DNA from: Phytoactinopolyspora halotolerans
GTDB taxonomy: Bacteria; Actinomycetota; Actinomycetes; Jiangellales; Jiangellaceae
Reading direction: 5' to 3'
DNA: 64,000 nt
Assembly (NCBI RefSeq): GCF_010550675.1
Contig: NZ_JAAGOA010000003.1
Location: 310,001-374,000, forward strand
The notes beneath the pieces were generated by a model. That model ran no database searches and was not told where the DNA came from. It saw only the letters and a list, made by a program, of their open reading frames with translations. Below are positions 25,385 through 33,659 of the stretch, piece by piece. The position numbers and the translations under genes were made by a program. Numbering within the stretch: the stretch's first letter is position 1; every line of letters begins with the position of its first letter.

Positions 25385-26662
25385 TCAGAAGCCGCCGAAG
25401 TCTCCGAAGCCGCCCCCGAAGTCGCCGCCACCGCCACCATCGCCGAAGCCGCCGCCGAAGTCACCTCCGCCGCCGCCCCCGAAGCCGCCCCCGAAGTCGC
25501 CGCCACCGCCGTCGGCTCCGGCGCCCGCGTCTGCGGCGCCGTAGGCCAGCGGGGCGGTCATGGTCGTGCCGAGCATGGTGCCGACCATCATCGCCGGGAG
25601 GACGGCGCCGTAGTATCCGGCCGCCCACGCACCGTAGGCCGGGCCGGCATCCCAGTACGGACGCCGCTCGCCGTCGACGGTGACCATCCGGGTGTCCGGG
25701 TTCTCGCCGTCGCGGATCCGGGTGGCATCGGCGGCGCAGACCGGGACCGTGCGGTTCACGCCACCTGGCGGCGCCCACAGCACATCGTCGACGGACGGGC
25801 CGTGCCGCGGATCGAAGAAGCACGGCGGGCGGCGCTCCGGCAGCGGCTCATTCTTCATCCGGGCGTCCACGCAGCCGAGCAGCCAGCGCCCCTCCTCCAG
25901 GGCGTTGGTGACGGCCTTCAGGTCCATGGGTTTCTCGGCGCGGTCCGCGTAGAGCTTGGCGTTCTCGTACAGGTCGAGGGCGCGGCCGTACTCGTGGCGT
26001 GCCTCTATCGGCACCTTGGAGTCGGCCTGCACGTCGAGGTCGAGTTCCGAGAGTCGCTCACCGTAGGCGGTGATGTCCTCGTCCAGCGCGCCGCGCACCT
26101 GTTCCAGCTGGACGCGCTCACGATTGCGCTTGTTCCGCCGGTAGAGCAGGAACCCACCACCGCCGGCCGCGGCCAAGATGGCCAGGGGCAGCAGCCCGCC
26201 GCCACCGTCCGGCTCGCTCGTTCCGGTGCCGTTGCCGCCGGCACCACTCGCACCGCCGTCGGCCGTGTCGGCCATACTCTCGTAGCGCTCCACGATCCCG
26301 TCTATGAGCTCCGGCATGTCCTCAGCGATGTTCGATACCGACACGGCCGTACTGCGGGCATCGCTGAGGATGGTGGATACGGCGTCGGCCCCACCATTAC
26401 TCAGCAGGGCGACATACGAGCCATCCTGACGGACGAGGTTAGCCAGATCTTCCACAGAGGCCCGGGCATCTTGGGCGGCAAGGGGTAGAACCGCGATCCA
26501 GATGGGCGTGGACGCCCCGTCTAGCAGCAGCCGGGCTTCTTCCTGCTGGGCCGACGTGAACGGAATACCGGCCTCCTCGAGCTCGGCCTCCGCTTCGGGA
26601 TGCACGAAGAGACGCACGTCTTCGCTGAGTTCTCTGCCCGCTTCATCCCACACGCTCGACAT
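25385..26662 (-). CDS. Membrane protein of a local four-member family, with Gly-rich tail
   Basis: Unknown function. From the ATG at 26662 (GAGGAG about 12 bases upstream; GTG 26677 is an alternative) the 425 residues read: an alpha/beta domain about 1-130 without signal peptide (STPIWIAVLPLAA, DGSYVALLSNG); Gly-rich linker; one TM helix about 154-173; a basic then helical region about 175-270; a motif RPPCFFDPRHG (Cys281) followed by VPVC (Cys309); and a tail of about 40 residues of GGGDFGGGF repeats. The same layout occurs in the genes at 28456-29616 and 30212-31549. N-domain and Gly/Phe-rich tail recall TPM/YgcG proteins, a weak resemblance. In this copy the second Cys of the CxxC is lost. 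Confidence 0.75.
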   Translation of the reverse strand: MSSVWDEAGRELSEDVRLFVHPEAEAELEEAGIPFTSAQQEEARLLLDGASTPIWIAVLPLAAQDARASVEDLANLVRQDGSYVALLSNGGADAVSTILSDARSTAVSVSNIAEDMPELIDGIVERYESMADTADGGASGAGGNGTGTSEPDGGGGLLPLAILAAAGGGGFLLYRRNKRNRERVQLEQVRGALDEDITAYGERLSELDLDVQADSKVPIEARHEYGRALDLYENAKLYADRAEKPMDLKAVTNALEEGRWLLGCVDARMKNEPLPERRPPCFFDPRHGPSVDDVLWAPPGGVNRTVPVCAADATRIRDGENPDTRMVTVDGERRPYWDAGPAYGAWAAGYYGAVLPAMMVGTMLGTTMTAPLAYGAADAGAGADGGGGDFGGGFGGGGGGDFGGGFGDGGGGGDFGGGFGDFGGF

Positions 26663-26835
26663 ATCTCCATCATCCACTCCTCACCCCTGGTGTGCCATAC
26701 CTGTTCCTGGCGACGCTCGATGAGGCACCGATGGTCGTGCGGAGGACCGGTCGCCCGTCGACGACTTCCGGCTGCAGCGTACGCCGCGTCTCGGACGAAA
26801 CGTGTATGTAGAACCTCGTGATTGACTGGGCCCCG

Positions 26836-28341
26836 ATGAGTTGCGACACACATCTGGATCGTCGGCGAGTGAACGGTTCGGCTCTCGTCGTCATCGGTGC
26901 ATCCGCGCTGATGATGACGGCATGCGGAGACGACGGGGAGGCAACCGGCGGCGAGGAGGAGAGCGTCGAAACGTGGAGTTACGTCACCCGCCCGGACTTG
27001 ACGCCGCCGGTCATCAGTGTGGAGACGACTGGTGCGACGGCCGACGGGCTGCTGTTCATGGCCCCGAAGAAGGCCGGCGCCCAGACAGGACCGCTGATCG
27101 TGGACGGCGAGGGTGAGATGGTCTGGTCATCTCCCAGGGAGGACATGAACGTCGCCGACTTCCGAGTTCAGGAGTACGACGGCGAGCCCGTGCTCACGTG
27201 GTGGGAGGGCGAGTCGCACGAGGGCCACGGCGACGGGGAGTTCGTGATCATGGACTCTTCGTACGAGGAGATCGCCCGCATCGGTGGGGGTGATGGCCGC
27301 CCGGGCGATCTGCACGAGTTCGAGCTCACCGACGACGGCACTGCGCTGGTCCTGGCCTACGAGACCGAGCCGGCCGACCTGCGGCCGTTCGGTGGTGAGG
27401 CGGACGGCGAGATGCTCAACAACTATGTCCAGGAGATCGACATCGAGACCGGTGAAGTCCTTCTCGAATGGGACGCGAGCGAGCATGTCGAGATGTCCGA
27501 CACGTACGACGACCTGGGCGGCGACGATGAGGACGCTGACGAGGGAGAGGACGAGGACGAGCCGTTCGATTGGTTCCATGTGAACTCCGTGGTCGAAGAC
27601 GACGACGGAGGCCTGCTCATCTCCGCACGCAACACCCACGCCGTCTACTACATCGACCGCGAGACCGGCGAGATCCGGTGGGTGCTCGGCGGCAGGAGCA
27701 GCGACTTCACCATGACCGACGAGACCACGTTCGCGTGGCAGCACGACGCCCGATGGACCGAGGACGGCTTGCTGAGCCTCTTCGACAACCAGGCCGCCCC
27801 GTCGCCGAGGGACGAGTCCCGGGCGATCGTGCTCGATCTCGATGAGGAGCGGGGGACGGTGCAGCTCGTCGAGGAACGCACGAACCCGGAGCGGATCAGG
27901 GCGTTCAGCCAGGGCAACGCGCAGCGGCTCGACGACGGAGGCGTGCTCGTGGGCTGGGGCAGCGGATCGGCCATGACCGAGTTCGACGCCGACGGGGCCG
28001 CCGTCATGCAGGCGATCCTCGCGCCGGCCGAGACATACCGCGCGTACCGGATGCCGTGGACGGGCGATCCGGCCTCACCACCCGACGTCGCGGCACAGGC
28101 GTCCGGCGACGGGCAGGTCGTCGTGTACATGAGCTGGAACGGCAGCACCGAGGTCACCCAATGGCGTGTCCTTGGTGGCGACGCCGAGGACCGCCTTCGA
28201 CCGGTGACGACCGTCGGCAAGGACGGGTTCGAGACCGCGGTCGCCGTGGACGACGCGGACTACGTGGACTACGTGGCCGTGGAGGCGCTGGACTCCTCCG
28301 GCGCAGTGCTCGGCACCTCGGACGTCGTCCCCACAGGTTGA
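26836..28341 (+). CDS. Arylsulfotransferase-family (ASST) lipoprotein
   Basis: Extracytoplasmic beta-propeller protein of the arylsulfotransferase family. Signal ending LMMTAC (Cys30 from the ATG at 26836) predicts a lipoprotein. Family motifs: WFHVNSVVEDDDGGLLISAR, YYIDRETGEIRWVLGG and FAWQHDARWTEDG, the last carrying a conserved His of this group. A highly acidic insert (DDEDADEGEDEDE, about 235-247) precedes the core motif. Members transfer sulfate between phenols or are of unknown activity; whether this one is catalytic cannot be told. It reads into a hairpin at 28371. The gene splits the four-member membrane-protein family, sitting between its first and second members on the opposite strand. 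Confidence 0.85.
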   Translation: MSCDTHLDRRRVNGSALVVIGASALMMTACGDDGEATGGEEESVETWSYVTRPDLTPPVISVETTGATADGLLFMAPKKAGAQTGPLIVDGEGEMVWSSPREDMNVADFRVQEYDGEPVLTWWEGESHEGHGDGEFVIMDSSYEEIARIGGGDGRPGDLHEFELTDDGTALVLAYETEPADLRPFGGEADGEMLNNYVQEIDIETGEVLLEWDASEHVEMSDTYDDLGGDDEDADEGEDEDEPFDWFHVNSVVEDDDGGLLISARNTHAVYYIDRETGEIRWVLGGRSSDFTMTDETTFAWQHDARWTEDGLLSLFDNQAAPSPRDESRAIVLDLDEERGTVQLVEERTNPERIRAFSQGNAQRLDDGGVLVGWGSGSAMTEFDADGAAVMQAILAPAETYRAYRMPWTGDPASPPDVAAQASGDGQVVVYMSWNGSTEVTQWRVLGGDAEDRLRPVTTVGKDGFETAVAVDDADYVDYVAVEALDSSGAVLGTSDVVPTG

Positions 28342-28370
28342 GGTGCCCGCGGCTCGGACGAGCGACGCGG

Positions 28371-28437
28371 CTTCTTGAGCGCCAGTGGCGAACAGAGGTC
28401 GCTGCGGGCGCCGTTGACGCAACGGGCGCTCAAGAAG
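28371..28437. terminator. Hairpin between convergent genes, family C copy 1
   Basis: 13-bp perfect arms CTTCTTGAGCGCC (28371-28383) and its complement (28425-28437). Related to the palindromes at 58636 and 60890 (CTTGTTGAGCGCCAGTGTCG). Lies between the ends of the ASST gene and the membrane-protein gene at 28456, so a shared bidirectional terminator is plausible, without a U-tract. Confidence 0.6.
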
Positions 28438-28455
28438 CGACGGCGATGAGCGACG

Positions 28456-29616
28456 TCACGCGCCGGGCCGGGCGGGACCGGCGAGTACGCGCTCGACGAG
28501 ATCGGCGCGGAGCGCCCCATAACCCGTCGAGGACCACGGCTCCGCGCCGGATTCGTAGTAGGGCACGTCCCGTGCACCGACGGTCACCATCAGCGTGTCC
28601 GGCTCGACGTCGTCGTCAACGTGCCGCGCACACACCGCACACGCGCCCACCCGGACGTGCGACGTGCTGTGCCCGGGGAGCGTGACGTCCCGGGTGGCCG
28701 CGCCGTGCAGCGGGTTGAAGAAGCACGGCCGAGGCAGCGGCCGGCGTCGCAGCGACTCGCGCCCGGTGGCCCGCCGCAGGTGTGCCGTGCCCGTCTCGGC
28801 CAGCACCAGCGCACCGACCAGGTCGGCGATCGAGCCGCCGCTCCGGTCGAGCGTGCGGCCCGCCGCGTCGTAGGCGTCCAGCGCGGCGCGATACTCGGTG
28901 ACCGCGCTGGTGCCGCTGCCGCTCCCGCCGCCGGCCGGAACGTCGGTCCGGTCCAGCGCCTCGCCCAGCTCCAGCACAGCCGCTCTGGCTTGCTCTTCCA
29001 GGGCCTCCGAACGGGCCTCGCGTACCGCATCCAGCACGTGCGGCGGCACCGAGAACGCCCTGGCCACCTGATTCTGGTCCCGGCGGGTGCGGGCGCGGTA
29101 GGTGAAGACCAGCGCCGCGACGAGTGCGACGAACAGTCCGATCATGATCACCGCCGCGAGCATCTCGGCAGCGTCGTCGGAAGACGAGGAGGTCGACGAG
29201 CCGTCGTCGGATCGCAGCTGCTCGTACGCTTCCTCCCCGGTGCCGGTCGCGACCAGCTCGACGAACCGTTCCAGCGTGGCGCCCGGATCGTCGTCGGGGT
29301 CTTCGGCCGCCCAGACGGCGTCGCTCTGGTTGGCCACCCCGTGCTCGCGCACGGTAAGCATCCCGCCCGGATTGACCGAGACGTAGACGCCGTCATCACC
29401 GAGCTGGTCCCAGACGAGCGCGAGGAGCTGGCCGGGGCGTCCGTTGAACTCGTCGTCGACGTCGAGTTGCGTGTACACGACATAGATGGGAACCGGGGAC
29501 TCCTCGACCATGGCGGTCAGGTCCTCGACCTGACCGTCCGGCAGCAGCCCCTGGTCGACGTAGACCGGGGAGTCGCCCAGTTCGTCGACGATGGTCGTCA
29601 CCCGCTCACTGGACAT
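28456..29616 (-). CDS. Membrane protein of the local four-member family
   Basis: Unknown function; paralogue of the genes at 25385 and 30212. In 386 residues: N-terminal alpha/beta domain about 1-135 starting with LGDSPVYVDQGLLP and PVPIYVVYTQ, no cleavable signal; TM helix about 151-173; helical region about 180-290; motif PRPCFFNPLHG (Cys298) and CAVC (Cys326, Cys329) followed by a conserved VPYY..W.STGYG end. The three Cys plus the His could bind a metal such as zinc. ATG with GAGGAG 6 bases upstream. Last gene of a three-gene series (31549 to 28456) on the minus strand. Confidence 0.75.
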   Translation of the reverse strand: MSSERVTTIVDELGDSPVYVDQGLLPDGQVEDLTAMVEESPVPIYVVYTQLDVDDEFNGRPGQLLALVWDQLGDDGVYVSVNPGGMLTVREHGVANQSDAVWAAEDPDDDPGATLERFVELVATGTGEEAYEQLRSDDGSSTSSSSDDAAEMLAAVIMIGLFVALVAALVFTYRARTRRDQNQVARAFSVPPHVLDAVREARSEALEEQARAAVLELGEALDRTDVPAGGGSGSGTSAVTEYRAALDAYDAAGRTLDRSGGSIADLVGALVLAETGTAHLRRATGRESLRRRPLPRPCFFNPLHGAATRDVTLPGHSTSHVRVGACAVCARHVDDDVEPDTLMVTVGARDVPYYESGAEPWSSTGYGALRADLVERVLAGPARPGA

Positions 29617-29649
29617 CGACGCTCCTCAACCTTCCTCAGCTCAGCTCAG

Positions 29650-30228
29650 TCAGCTCGCCTCGCCGCGCCCGCCGCCGCCGAACATCCGGATCAGCGAGTC
29701 GGCCATCGGTCCCTCCGGGAGGGAGACGACCGGCCAGCTGATCTGGTCGCCGGTGCGCTGGATGCCGGCGTCGTAGCGACGCTGATCGATGATGACGTAG
29801 CGGCCGTCCTCACCCACCTGGTCCGCGAGCGCGATGACGGCCGCCTCGATGTTCCCGCCCATCCCGTCCTCCTCGTGGAACGGCATAACGACGACGAAGG
29901 TAGGCTCGCCGCCGCGCAGGACGTCGACCACATCCTCCCGCTCGCTCTCCGGCAGCAGGTAGGCGAGGGCGGGATCGACGTACAGCGGCGACTCCGCCAG
30001 TCGCGCCGCGGCGTCGCGCAGCCGGTCGTCGGCCGGCGGCACGTTCGCCACCTGCTCGATCTCGGTGCGCGTGGTCCAGTCCTTGCGGGTGCCGTCGTCG
30101 GAGAGCCAGAGTGCGACGTTGCGCGTCACCACGGCGGCGATGATCCCGATGAGCAACGCCAGCAGCACGCGCATGCCGCGGCTCAGCCGTGGCCTGGGCG
30201 CGGCGACGTCCCTACCGCCGCCGGTCAT
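29650..30228 (-). CDS. Short membrane-anchored member of the same family (N-domain only)
   Basis: Unknown function. The ATG at 30228 (GGGAGG 7 bases upstream) overlaps the previous gene's stop by 17 bp, indicating coupled translation. The 192 residues hold a basic leader, one N-terminal TM helix (MRVLLALLIGIIAAVVTRN), and an alpha/beta domain with LAESPLYVDPALAYLLP, EPTFVVVMPF and DGRYVIIDQRR. This matches the N-domain of the family members on either side, but the cytoplasmic helical region and Cys motif are missing. The N-terminal anchor places the domain outside the cell. Confidence 0.75.
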   Translation of the reverse strand: MTGGGRDVAAPRPRLSRGMRVLLALLIGIIAAVVTRNVALWLSDDGTRKDWTTRTEIEQVANVPPADDRLRDAAARLAESPLYVDPALAYLLPESEREDVVDVLRGGEPTFVVVMPFHEEDGMGGNIEAAVIALADQVGEDGRYVIIDQRRYDAGIQRTGDQISWPVVSLPEGPMADSLIRMFGGGGRGEAS

Positions 30229-31549
30229 GGGCGAACCTCCCGGGAAGCGCGGTACCGGCGCGAGCACCCGCCAGCACCAGATCGGCGGCGTCGGCGCGGA
30301 GGGACCCGAACCCGGTGAACGCCCAGACGTCGTCGCGACGGTAGTACGGGACCACCTTCCGGCCCTGCCGGAGACGGAGCACGTCGGGGTGGCGCCCTTC
30401 CCGCAGGTCCAGCTCGCACCGCGGGCACACGGGCACTCGCGGCGAGCTCGCGTCGCCGGGCAGTGGTGCGGTGGTCGAATGCTCCCCGTGCATGGGATTG
30501 AGATAACACGGGCGTGGCGGCTCGGCCGGTCGATGTCCGATGGACGTGTCGGCGGCGTACTCGGCGAGCACCATCGCTCCCACCACGTCGGCCGGGTCGG
30601 TGCTGTCCTGCAGGGCGTGTGCGGCGTCGGCGGCGTTGCGGAGTGCCTGCTGGAGGTCGGGGTCGACGTCGTCGGCAGCGTTCCACTGGCTCTCGTCGAT
30701 CACCGCCAGCGCGTCGCGGAGCCGGCGCCGCGCTGCGGAGACGTCGGAAGGCTGTCGCGGCGCCGAGGATCTGGAGCGCGTGCCCACCAGGGCGAAGACG
30801 ACGGCCGCGAGTATCGCCGACGCCGCGCCGACGACGAAGCCCAGACCCAGCGCCCCATCCTCGGTCATGCCGTTGGTGGGGCCGAGCTCGGTCAGCTCGA
30901 TGCGGACCCGCGTCTCGCTGAAGTCCACGTGGGTGCGGTTCATCAAGGGGTCGCCGCCGAGATCGGAGGAGATCTCCGCCGCGGCCGCCTCGCCCTCCGG
31001 TCCGTACCAGCCGCCGGACTCGACGATCGGTGCGACGCGCAGGAAGGCGCGGGCGTCGGCGACGGGGGTGGAGTCGAACGCTTCGGTGCCGGCGAAGCCG
31101 GCGTTCGCCAGTGTCAGGTCGTCGATGCCGTCGAGGCCGGGCGAGATGGCCTCCACCCAGTCGCCGATGCCGACGACGTAGAGGCCGTCCTCGCCCACCC
31201 GGCGATGGATCAGGGTGGCGAGCTCGCCGGGCACATCGGGCAGATCGTCGCCTGGCACCTTGTGCACCAGGACGACGTAGGCCGGATACGTAGAGCCGGC
31301 GATCTCGTCGTGCAGGATCTCCCGCACGGCCTCGACGTCGCCGTTCGCCATCGACCGGTCGACGACGAGGGGGTCGGTGCGCAGCCGCTCGGCGATCTGG
31401 TCGACGCGGGCGCCCGGCTCGGCGATCTGGAGATCCTGGGTGGCGCGTGCCGGCGCGGCGGCGACGAACATGCCGATGGCGGCGGCCAGGATCGCGCAGA
31501 TGAGACCGGCTATGCGGGCTGGGTGCCGCGCTGATCGGTGATCCGTCAC
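30212..31549 (-). CDS. Membrane protein of the local four-member family, with cleavable signal
   Basis: Unknown function; first gene of a three-gene series. GTG start (31549). In 445 residues: signal peptide ending about AAPARA (36), which fixes the N-domain outside the cell; alpha/beta domain about 38-225 with LRTDPLVVDRSMANG, YPAYVVLVHK and DGLYVVGIGD; TM helix about 233-256; cytoplasmic helical part about 270-340; C-terminal motif PRPCYLNPMHG (Cys348), CPRC (Cys375/378) and VPYY...W.FTGFGSL. Because this copy has a clear signal peptide, it sets the likely topology of the whole family. Confidence 0.78.
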   Translation of the reverse strand: MTDHRSARHPARIAGLICAILAAAIGMFVAAAPARATQDLQIAEPGARVDQIAERLRTDPLVVDRSMANGDVEAVREILHDEIAGSTYPAYVVLVHKVPGDDLPDVPGELATLIHRRVGEDGLYVVGIGDWVEAISPGLDGIDDLTLANAGFAGTEAFDSTPVADARAFLRVAPIVESGGWYGPEGEAAAAEISSDLGGDPLMNRTHVDFSETRVRIELTELGPTNGMTEDGALGLGFVVGAASAILAAVVFALVGTRSRSSAPRQPSDVSAARRRLRDALAVIDESQWNAADDVDPDLQQALRNAADAAHALQDSTDPADVVGAMVLAEYAADTSIGHRPAEPPRPCYLNPMHGEHSTTAPLPGDASSPRVPVCPRCELDLREGRHPDVLRLRQGRKVVPYYRRDDVWAFTGFGSLRADAADLVLAGARAGTALPGRFAHDRRR

Positions 31550-31596: not shown

Positions 31597-33378
31597 CTAA
31601 TCCTTGATCTCGCAGATCACGGCTCCGTTGGCGACCGTCGCGCCGACCTGGGCGGACAACCCGGACACGGTGCCGGCTTTGTGCGCGTTCAACGGCTGTT
31701 CCATCTTCATCGCCTCCAGGACGACGATGGGTTCGCCCTCGGCCACCTGCTGACCGTCCTCGGCCACCACCTTGATGATGGTGCCCTGCATCGGAGAGAC
31801 GAGGGCGTCGCCGCTGACGGCGGTGGTTCCGGCGCTACCCGCCTGCCGGCGCACCGGCTTGCGGGCGGCGGGTGCGGCGGCGGAGGAGGACGACGACGCT
31901 CCGAGCCCTTCCGGCAGCACCACCTCGAGCCGCTTGCCGTTCACCTCGACCGTGATCCGTTCCCGAGCCGCTGCCTCGCCCGGCTCCGCCTGACCTGCGC
32001 GGAAAGGCTGGACCGTGTTCTGCCATTCGGTCTCGATCCACCGGGTGTGCACCTCGAACGGCTTGTCCGGCTCCTGCGGGGCGAAGGCGGGGTCGTCGAG
32101 CACCGCCCGGTGGAACGGGATGACCGTGGCCAGACCGTCGACCTCGAACTCGGCAAGCGCGCGCCGGGCCCGCTGGATCGCCTGCCTTCGGTCGGCGCCG
32201 GTGACGACCAGCTTCGCCAGCAACGAGTCGAAGTTCTGCCCGATGACGCTGCCGGCCACCACACCCGCATCGAGCCGGACACCCGGACCCGACGGCGGAT
32301 CGAACCTGGTCACCGGCCCTGGAGTAGGCAAGAAGTTCTGCCCGGCATCCTCGCCGTTGATGCGGAACTCGATCGAATGCCCGCGCACCTGCGGGTCGTC
32401 GTAGCCGAGCTCTTCCCCTTCGGCGACGCGGAACATCTCACGCACCAGGTCGATCCCGGTGACCTCTTCGGTGACCGGGTGTTCGACCTGCAGCCGGGTG
32501 TTGACCTCCAGAAAGGAGATCGTGCCGTCGGCGCCGACCAGGAACTCGCAGGTCCCCGCGCCGACGTAGCCGGCACCGCGCAGGATCGCCTTCGACGCCC
32601 GGTACAGCTGAGCGTTCTGTGCCTCGGTGAGGAACGGTGCCGGCGCCTCTTCCACCAGCTTCTGGTGCCGACGCTGCAGCGAGCAGTCACGAGTGGAGAC
32701 CACCACGACGTTGCCGTGCTGGTCGGCCAGGCACTGGGTCTCCACATGGCGGGGCCGGTCCAGGTAGCGCTCGACGAAGCACTCGCCGCGGCCGAACGCG
32801 GCCACCGCCTCACGCACCGCCGACTCGTACTGGGAGGCGACCTCGTCCAGCGTGCGCGCCACCTTCAACCCACGGCCGCCGCCGCCGAAGGCCGCCTTGA
32901 TCGCGATCGGAAGCCCGTGCTCCTCGGCGAAGGCCACCACCTCGTCGGCACCGGAGACCGGGTCGGCGGTGCCGGCCACCAGCGGCGCGCCGGCCCGTTG
33001 CGCGATGTGCCGGGCGCTCACCTTGTCGCCCAGCGCGCGGATCGCCTCCGGCGGCGGCCCGATCCAGGTCAGTCCGGCGTCGATCACCGCCTGCGCGAAG
33101 TCCGCGTTCTCGGCCAGGAAGCCGTAGCCGGGATGGACCGAGTCGGCACCGGAGCGGGCGGCGACATCCAACAGCTTCTGGATATCCAGGTAGGTCTCGG
33201 CCGCGGTCTCACCGCCCAGGGCATACGCCTCGTCCGCCAGCCGGGTGTGAACAGCGTCGCGATCGGAGTCGGCGTAGACAGCCACGCTGCCACGGCCGGC
33301 GTCCTTGCACGCACGGATCACCCGCACCGCGATCTCACCGCGATTGGCGATCAGCACCTTGGTGACGCTGCGATTCAC
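31597..33378 (-). CDS. accA: Acyl-CoA carboxylase alpha subunit (biotin carboxylase + biotin carrier)
   Basis: ATP-dependent carboxylation of its own biotin, the first half-reaction of acetyl/propionyl-CoA carboxylase. In 593 residues: biotin carboxylase domain ([17 protein letters not shown] start, ATP-grasp loop [11 protein letters not shown], catalytic [14 protein letters not shown]), a linker, and a C-terminal biotinyl domain with EAMKMEQP (Lys558 is the biotin site). GTG at 33378 with GGGAGAG 5 bases upstream is the start; an earlier in-frame TTG is not. Works with the beta (PccB 40870-42459) and epsilon (AccE 39840-40079) subunits; BirA is encoded at 47680. A small imperfect stem (33447-33494) lies in the 281-bp divergent region upstream. 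Confidence 0.96.
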
Positions 33379-33659
33379 GACCTCTCCCTTCCATCGCCTG
33401 CGCAACAGGCTATCTGACCGGGACGCGGCGATTCGTACTCATGCGTCCTCGCCGCCGCTGCCCGCCTCGATGACGGTGACCCGCAGCGGCGAGGATACTG
33501 CTACCGCACGCGCGCGCGAGATGGCGTAACGTCGGCTGCAGAGGTGGCCAGGCCCTGCGGCGGCGTGCGATCGACCATCGGCTCGCCGGCGCCGTGCCCG
33601 ACGCCGTTCAACCGAGCCGACATGGGCCACAAGCCCAGGCGTGCAGGAAGGTAGGGACA

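What the first reader, a model, noticed from the sequence alone, without database searches (positions are those of the whole stretch)
25385..31549. Cluster of four paralogous membrane proteins with an unrecognised C-terminal Cys/His motif
Genes at 25385, 28456, 29650 and 30212 share an N-terminal alpha/beta domain (core like SPVYVD...L followed by a PxxVVV strand and DGxYV). Three of them add one TM helix, a helical region and a C-terminal PRPC(F/Y)xNPxHG...VPVCxxC...VPYY...GYG motif that looks like a small zinc site on the cytoplasmic side. One member has a signal peptide, fixing the topology as sensor-like domain out, helical and Cys-motif part in. The N-domain only resembles TPM/YgcG proteins weakly. 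A three-gene operon plus a detached fourth copy, with an ASST-like lipoprotein on the other strand, suggests an envelope system rather than isolated hypotheticals.
Basis: partly seen in the sequence, partly recalled or inferred. Interest (0 to 1): 0.72.

Follow-up and report, generated by a model that had tools for sequence, protein, structure and literature searches.

The report
Actinobacterial membrane proteins linked to PspA
Four related bacterial membrane proteins, three of them with a conserved zinc-finger-like tip, belong to a widespread but unnamed actinobacterial family whose genes, in several other lineages, sit right beside pspA, the gene for a membrane-repair protein, so they probably help that repair system act at the membrane.

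Summary
Four paralogues lie where stated (A 25385, B 28456, C 29650, D 30212; minus strand). A, B and D carry a conserved C-x5-H...C-x2-[C/D] site after a helical region. No Pfam or NCBIfam model matches them above cut-off. B, C and D are a restricted operon with a second copy elsewhere in this genome; here it lies between an acyl-CoA carboxylase alpha gene and A. AlphaFold2 predicts a membrane helix, a three-helix bundle and a layout like a treble-clef zinc finger. The N-domain is at best weakly TPM-like, but a distant member matches the mycobacterial Rv1476 family above cut-off. In 12 of 26 genomes of other classes pspA lies within 2 kb of the A-type module; two of these loci, checked by Pfam, also hold pspAA. 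I infer a PspA membrane partner working like Bacillus YdjH. The ASST gene is not a conserved partner (4 of 20 family genomes, adjacent in 2). In the window's own class no such pspA link was seen; metal binding and PspA contact are untested.

The parts
25385..26677 (-). Gene A (430 aa; alternative ATG start 26662): N-domain without signal peptide, one TM, three-helix bundle, C-x5-H...C-x2-D site, Gly/Asp/Phe-rich tail. The widespread member.
25658..25822 (-). Treble-clef-like Cys/His module of A (residues 281-335 counted from ATG 26662: C281, H287, C309, D312)
   Evidence: conservation
28456..29616 (-). Gene B (386 aa): N-domain without signal peptide, TM 153-171, helical region, C-x5-H...C-x2-C, no Gly-rich tail
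28555..28725 (-). Cys/His module of B (about residues 298-354)
29650..30267 (-). Gene C (205 aa; alternative ATG 30228): N-terminal TM plus N-domain only; its start overlaps the end of D
30212..31549 (-). Gene D (445 aa): N-terminal signal-like segment, N-domain (residues 41-140, block pLDDT 80-96), TM 237-255, helical region, C-x5-H...C-x2-C
30344..30508 (-). Cys/His module of D (about residues 348-402; C348, H354, C375, C378; block pLDDT 50-90)
31597..33405 (-). Acyl-CoA carboxylase alpha subunit (biotin carboxylase plus biotinyl domain), co-directional and directly upstream of D; conserved neighbour of A-type genes in the class
26818..28341 (+). ASST-like lipoprotein (PF14269 E 3e-66) between A and B on the other strand; not a conserved partner

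Best explanation
A, B and D are members (C a truncated member) of an unnamed family of single-pass actinobacterial membrane proteins. Outside the membrane lies a small alpha/beta domain related to the Rv1476 type and perhaps to TPM. Inside lie a three-helix bundle and a treble-clef-like, probably zinc-binding module with ligands C, H, C and C or D; in A this is followed by a Gly/Asp-rich tail that usually ends in an aromatic residue. Most likely mechanism: the outer domain responds to a damaged or unbalanced envelope, and the inner helix-plus-zinc platform holds or recruits the ESCRT-III-like repair protein PspA (with PspAA) at the membrane, working like the TPM-type protein YdjH does for PspA in Bacillus subtilis. 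A is the widely kept, presumably ancestral member; D-C-B is a lineage-restricted set, here placed between the acyl-CoA carboxylase gene and A, probably making a specialised version or a hetero-complex. Shown here: paralogy, membership in a broad family, conservation of the Cys/His site in the sequences held, predicted layout of the cytoplasmic part, adjacency of A-type genes to pspA in other classes. Inferred: zinc binding, stress sensing, contact with PspA, and that the window's members do what the pspA-linked ones do.
For: pspA (PF04012) lies within 2 kb of the A-type module in 12 of 26 genomes of other classes of the phylum: 7 have pspA just downstream on the same strand, 5 are divergent. 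By family: f58 4 of 4, f70 3 of 3, f34 3 of 5, f46 2 of 6, and f45, f67, f72, f84 together 0 of 8 (one f72 genome is 4 kb apart). Two of these loci were checked for pspAA and both have it beside pspA (PF22743 3e-34; 2e-27); the other ten were not checked. With sequences chosen by the helical region alone, 182 of 190 unique homologues have C-x5-H plus C-x2-C (51) or C-x2-D (131); the other 8 are truncated. AF2 model of A: block pLDDT 87-97 over residues 171-340; knuckle 281-287, strands 292-296 and 304-308, helix 310-317 right after C309, the treble-clef ligand layout; the D model has the same order at lower confidence. N-domain: distant member L178 matches PF20381 Rv1476, E 8e-9, 35.8 bits against a cut-off of 26; profile comparison of the distant members with Rv1476 95% and of A with the distant members 75%. 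YdjH, called a TPM protein in PMC11237479 (section 19), is reported as the likely membrane anchor of PspA in PMC8581546 (passages).
Against: In the window's own class 0 of 12 A-bearing genomes that have a pspA show the two genes side by side (coordinates); the window genome's pspA is on contig C3, A on C23. There the conserved neighbour is the acyl-CoA carboxylase alpha gene. The TPM link is weak: no Pfam TPM match; the mixed TPM set gives 14-57%, but its canonical members alone give only 1-8%, close to reversed controls of 0.1-3.5%. A alone against Rv1476 gives 28%, and B/C/D against Rv1476 2.5%. The N-domain of the A model has low confidence (block pLDDT 36-70). Structure searches found nothing above the helical-bundle background. 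Short forms lack the outer domain, so sensing cannot be universal. A and B of this family lack a signal peptide, so the outer location of their N-domain rests on charge bias and on relatives.
Confidence: 0.42

Rival explanations
1. The family serves membrane lipid synthesis: it anchors or tunes acyl-CoA carboxylase at the membrane, with envelope state sensed by the outer domain.
For: Of 14 class loci other than Streptomyces that I read, the A-type gene follows the acyl-CoA carboxylase alpha gene directly on the same strand in 7; in 3 more D takes that place; in the other 4 the two genes are about 1.4-5.3 kb apart. In the one Streptomyces locus read, a carboxyl transferase gene lies about 3 kb away. 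In S. coelicolor accB-accE and pspA are both listed sigma-E targets (PMC6767563, passages).
Against: In several other classes the neighbour is pspA. The carboxylase gene is part of a block of housekeeping genes kept together in the class (pyridine-nucleotide oxidoreductase, phosphomannomutase-type, nucleoside phosphorylase), so linkage may be inherited map order.
Confidence: 0.2
2. The family helps cell-wall assembly or hydrolase control, as a counterpart of the mycobacterial Rv1476 protein, whose gene precedes NlpC/P60-type and MoxR-type genes.
For: One distant member matches PF20381 (Rv1476) over cut-off. PF20381 is over cut-off in 9 of 148 class genomes, all of family f4 (a tenth match, in f5, is below cut-off), and those 9 genomes show no A-type module, as if the two replace each other. 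The three Rv1476-type loci read share downstream gene clusters, named NlpC/P60 and MoxR from recall of the M. tuberculosis gene order, not from a family search.
Against: The window's A-D do not match PF20381 and the best match in its genome is 13.4 bits against a cut-off of 26. The Rv1476 type lacks the helical and Cys/His part. Among the few neighbours of A-type genes that I scanned only one wall-enzyme type was seen, an M23 peptidase in G331.
Confidence: 0.15
3. The Cys residues form a cytoplasmic redox switch rather than a structural zinc site.
For: Conserved Cys at two half-sites.
Against: The fourth position is Asp in 131 of 182 complete homologues, and the other constant partner is His; this fits metal binding better than a disulphide.
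Confidence: 0.07
4. An envelope system built with the ASST-like lipoprotein.
For: The ASST gene lies between A and B in the window and beside A in G002.
Against: Orthologue in 4 of 20 family genomes and adjacent to A in only 2; A is found in all 20.
Confidence: 0.03

Closest known systems
YdjH of the Bacillus subtilis pspA-ydjGHI operon (TPM domain, PspA membrane partner)
   Same: Membrane protein beside pspA (here in other classes of the phylum), with an outer domain that may be TPM-like; zinc-finger motifs occur in the same B. subtilis operon (YdjI, YdjG).
   Different: The actinobacterial N-domain is below detection by the TPM model; it adds a three-helix bundle and a treble-clef-like module in the same chain; in the window's class it is not beside pspA. 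An SPFH partner was not searched for.
Rv1476 family (PF20381), mycobacterial membrane protein, reported essential by transposon mutagenesis
   Same: N-domain similarity (one distant member over cut-off); N-domain followed by a TM helix.
   Different: The Rv1476-type proteins end soon after the TM helix and lack the helical and Cys/His module; over cut-off only in family f4, where the A-type module was not found.
TPM_phosphatase (PF04536) proteins, such as YgcG and TLP18.3 (names recalled)
   Same: Predicted element order of the N-domain (read against the recalled TPM fold) and weak profile similarity to a mixed TPM set; Gly-rich tails are also typical of TPM proteins (recalled).
   Different: No hit to the Pfam model; canonical TPM set at control level. 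In G001, G003, G010 and G021 a separate TPM gene lies 1.6-2.8 kb from pspA; the window genome has no PF04536 match at E 0.001.
Treble-clef zinc fingers
   Same: Knuckle, beta-hairpin, then helix with the second ligand pair at its start (predicted; fold definition recalled).
   Different: Fourth ligand Asp in most A-type proteins; no solved relative found by sequence.

Membership tests
TPM_phosphatase (PF04536) | Match to the curated profile | tested here: not met
   No hit for A-D, 19 A-type rows or 9 of the 14 distant members prepared
TPM_phosphatase (PF04536) | Remote profile similarity and fold | tested here: inconclusive
   Profile-profile 14-57% against a mixed TPM set, but 1-8% against its canonical members; reversed controls 0.1-3.5%. 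Foldseek/VIA lists dominated by the helical bundle
Rv1476 (PF20381) | Match over the curated cut-off | tested here: not met
   A-D: none; best in the own genome 13.4 bits against 26. Met by distant relative L178, 35.8 bits
Psp (PspA) system partner | Gene adjacent to pspA | tested here: inconclusive
   Met in 12 of 26 other-class genomes; not met in the window genome nor in 11 other class genomes with both genes
Psp (PspA) system partner | Physical interaction with PspA or control of its localisation | not testable with these tools
   Needs experiment; reported for B. subtilis YdjH (PMC8581546, passages)
Treble-clef zinc finger | Four ligand positions placed as knuckle pair plus pair at helix start | tested here: met
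   182 of 190 unique homologues, 8 truncated; predicted secondary structure of A and D. Side-chain geometry not inspected
Treble-clef zinc finger | Structural match to a known treble clef | tested here: inconclusive
   Whole-model searches did not cover this part
Treble-clef zinc finger | Binds zinc | not testable with these tools
   Needs metal analysis
ASST-linked system | Co-occurrence with the ASST gene | tested here: not met
   4 of 20 family genomes, adjacent in 2

The most novel reading that the evidence does not exclude
A phylum-wide, unnamed actinobacterial receptor for PspA: an outer TPM/Rv1476-type stress-sensing domain joined through one membrane helix to a zinc treble-clef platform that loads the ESCRT-III-like PspA and PspAA onto damaged membrane. 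Mycobacteria replaced it by the essential Rv1476 protein, and the window's lineage elaborated it into a three-protein variant (D-C-B).
Probability: 0.25. Interest if true: 0.75.

Novelty: new variant of a known kind. Interest (0 to 1): 0.55.

Why it matters
If right, this gives Streptomyces and its relatives a concrete, testable membrane partner for the repair protein PspA, in a family that no Pfam or NCBIfam model named for the proteins scanned. It also ties the mycobacterial Rv1476 protein, reported as essential and of unknown function, to a wider family with a suggested role, and describes a module (helix bundle plus C-H-C-C/D site) for annotators to define.

Tried and rejected
Pfam and NCBIfam scans of A-D: only sub-threshold hits. 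Foldseek and VIA-align of both models: lists filled by helical bundles (best VIA Z 10.1, 2.6 A over 76 residues, a small uranyl-binding protein; best Z 8.6 for the D model). PDB sequence search with A4 and A1: nothing significant. D-C-B as recent tandem copies of A: rejected, since the 17 A rows form one clade (100/100) apart from B and D; the tree program warns that long branches meet, B is not one clade, and B_G057 is a long branch. ASST partnership: rejected. Literature: Rv1476 with RipA none; Rv1476 alone 3 papers; searches that could have found this family listed no paper whose title or abstract start describes it. I read passages or sections of four papers and no supplements, so an unnamed mention is not excluded. 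A class scan around G135 gave 8 of 24 genomes with the module, all 8 already among the 26, so it is no independent sample.

Limits of the counts. In one search only 9 candidates per genome were scored, so misses are possible. The ASST search used 20 of the 22 family genomes (the two least complete, G007 and G008, left out). In f34, G124 and G253 have the contig end just after the module, so their downstream side is unseen; their upstream side, where the other f34 genomes have pspA, shows none. Neighbour genes came from a simple GC3-based caller of mine that missed or mis-started some genes (A in G022, pspA in L259); the accA adjacency of G022 and the class pspA distances (except G000 and G039, scripted) were worked out by hand from coordinates. 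Conservation is biased because loci were fetched by searches that include the motif, and 80 loci are Streptomyces. Profile comparisons dropped L194 (wrong frame) from the TPM set and L173 from the A set, and used 20 signal-peptide A rows; no reversed control was run for the distant members. Start codons for the signal-segment count were chosen by me, the most upstream ones for Streptomyces. The second structure job used 31 of the 80 Streptomyces proteins. On rechecking I lowered the best-explanation odds from 0.45 to 0.42, because the canonical-TPM result had been left out. Two early scripts went astray (one search did not turn minus-strand loci, one search used too strict a pattern) and were replaced.
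Full report
What is there. Four minus-strand genes occupy the stated places. Pairwise BLASTP shows B, C and D related over the N-domain, and A, B and D related over the helical and Cys/His part. The same genome holds a second D-C-B set on contig C6 at 186372-189282, in the same order with overlapping genes. None of A-D matches a Pfam or NCBIfam model above cut-off.

A is the widely conserved member. With A as query 34 of 60 genomes (own included) have a match at E 1e-5. With B 31 of 60 do, but close B orthologues (59-66% identity) were found only in G003 and G005, and many B hits fall on A-type genes. A profile of the cytoplasmic module (A4) finds 38 of 396 phylum genomes, 26 of them in other classes. 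In a maximum-likelihood tree of 34 modules, the 17 A rows form one clade (100/100) and the 7 D rows one clade (97/90); B is not resolved as one, and the program warns of long branches.

Anatomy. Full-length A-type proteins from other families start with a signal-like segment (80 of 80 Streptomyces; 5 of 5 A1 rows from other families), while none of 9 full-length A rows and none of 14 B-type loci read from the window's family has one (the one B-like locus from another family, L055, does). Five A1 rows are short forms that begin at the membrane helix and lack the N-domain; one of them, L035, is from the window's family. Charge bias puts the C-terminal part inside in window A, B and D. Three A rows show no TM over my threshold, apparently because the helix is Gly-rich. 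Of 125 distinct Gly-rich tails, 112 have an aromatic residue in the last two positions; B and D have no such tail.

The Cys/His site. Across 34 aligned modules the invariant columns are C, P, H, G, C and Y. Selecting by the helical region only, 190 unique homologues were found: 51 with C-x2-C, 131 with C-x2-D, 8 truncated, and no complete one without the site; the set is biased by how loci were fetched. AF2 gives A a confident helix bundle and small domain (block pLDDT 87-97 over residues 171-340; pTM 0.49 overall), with the order knuckle, two strands, helix, ligand 3 just before the helix; D repeats this order at lower confidence (mean pLDDT 59.6). That is the treble-clef ligand layout (recalled). 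I could not inspect coordinates, and the fold searches were swamped by helical bundles.

The N-domain. The D model shows helix, strand, helix, strand, helix, strand, strand (residues 47-135, block pLDDT 80-96); in the A model this part has low confidence. Local profile comparison gives 98.9% between the A and B/C/D sets, 75% between A and distant members L176-L178, 95% between those and the Rv1476 set, 28% between A and Rv1476, and 2.5% between B/C/D and Rv1476. Against a mixed TPM set the values are 14% (A), 43% (B/C/D), 57% (distant) and 47% (A plus B/C/D), in similar register; against its canonical members alone they are 1-8%, and reversed controls gave 0.1-3.5%. L178 itself hits PF20381 over cut-off. 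So I call it Rv1476-like and possibly TPM-like, not a proven TPM domain.

Neighbourhood. In the class, the acyl-CoA carboxylase alpha gene is directly upstream and co-directional in 7 of 14 loci read (G037, G022, G007, G048, G049, G053, G027), is followed by D in 3 (window, G003, G005), and lies about 1.4-5.3 kb away in the other 4 (G001, G002, G010, G057) (G022 by hand). In other classes pspA lies within 2 kb of the module in 12 of 26 genomes (G101, G132, G135, G167, G177, G220, G283, G305, G356, G381, G383, G392). Seven are same-strand with pspA 244-336 bases beyond the module, five divergent. G236 is 4 kb away. Two loci checked by Pfam contain PspAA beside pspA; the others were not checked. 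37 of 39 A-bearing genomes tested have a pspA, so bare co-occurrence says little; adjacency does. In the class 0 of 12 genomes with both show adjacency. In G001, G003, G010 and G021 of the window's family a canonical TPM gene lies 1.6-2.8 kb from pspA, as if the A-type protein takes that place in other classes; the window genome itself has no TPM match.

Literature. PMC11237479 (passages and section 19) describes TPM-domain and zinc-ribbon proteins with PspA in Firmicutes and suggests an assembly role. PMC8581546 (passages) reports that membrane proteins YdjG and YdjH are needed for PspA foci and that YdjH interacts with PspA in a two-hybrid test. PMC6767563 (passages) lists pspA and accB-accE as sigma-E targets in S. 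coelicolor. PMC10888442 (first of four parts) states that Rv1476 is a membrane protein reported essential by a transposon screen, of uncharacterised function. No listing describing the present family was seen.

ASST. The lipoprotein is a true ASST-like protein but has orthologues in only 4 of 20 family genomes and lies beside A in 2 (window and G002).

Verdict. The wider picture is an actinobacteria-wide membrane protein whose genomic link in several classes is pspA. The PspA-tether mechanism is the best reading, at a little under even odds, because in the window's own class the link is to the acyl-CoA carboxylase gene and no interaction is shown.

Noticed in passing
L180-L188, L220-L222: PF20381 (Rv1476) is over cut-off in 9 of 148 class genomes, all family f4, and the A-type module was not found in those same nine: the two look mutually exclusive.
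   Followed up: partly
window 25385-26677 and 28456-29616: A and B of this family seem to export a roughly 130-residue N-domain without any signal peptide, although full-length relatives in other families have one: apparent loss of the signal peptide in one family.
   Followed up: partly
L035-L038, L060: Short A-type forms that start at the membrane helix and lack the outer domain (five A1 rows).
   Followed up: no
L227, L228, L229: A further set of paralogues in the window's family with a variant motif (C-F-F-D-Q/A-R-H-G-V-S...C-x2-C).
   Followed up: no
L236 8249-11891: A genome of family f19 has a second two-gene set of N-domain proteins beside a tsaD-like gene (gene names by eye).
   Followed up: no
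A-type C-termini: 112 of 125 Gly-rich tails have an aromatic residue in the last two positions, 99 ending in Phe; what the tail does is unexplained.
   Followed up: partly
L255: In G135 two genes that cluster with genes downstream of the Rv1476-type gene (clusters 11 and 12, MoxR-like by recall) lie within about 10 kb of the A-type gene and pspA.
   Followed up: no
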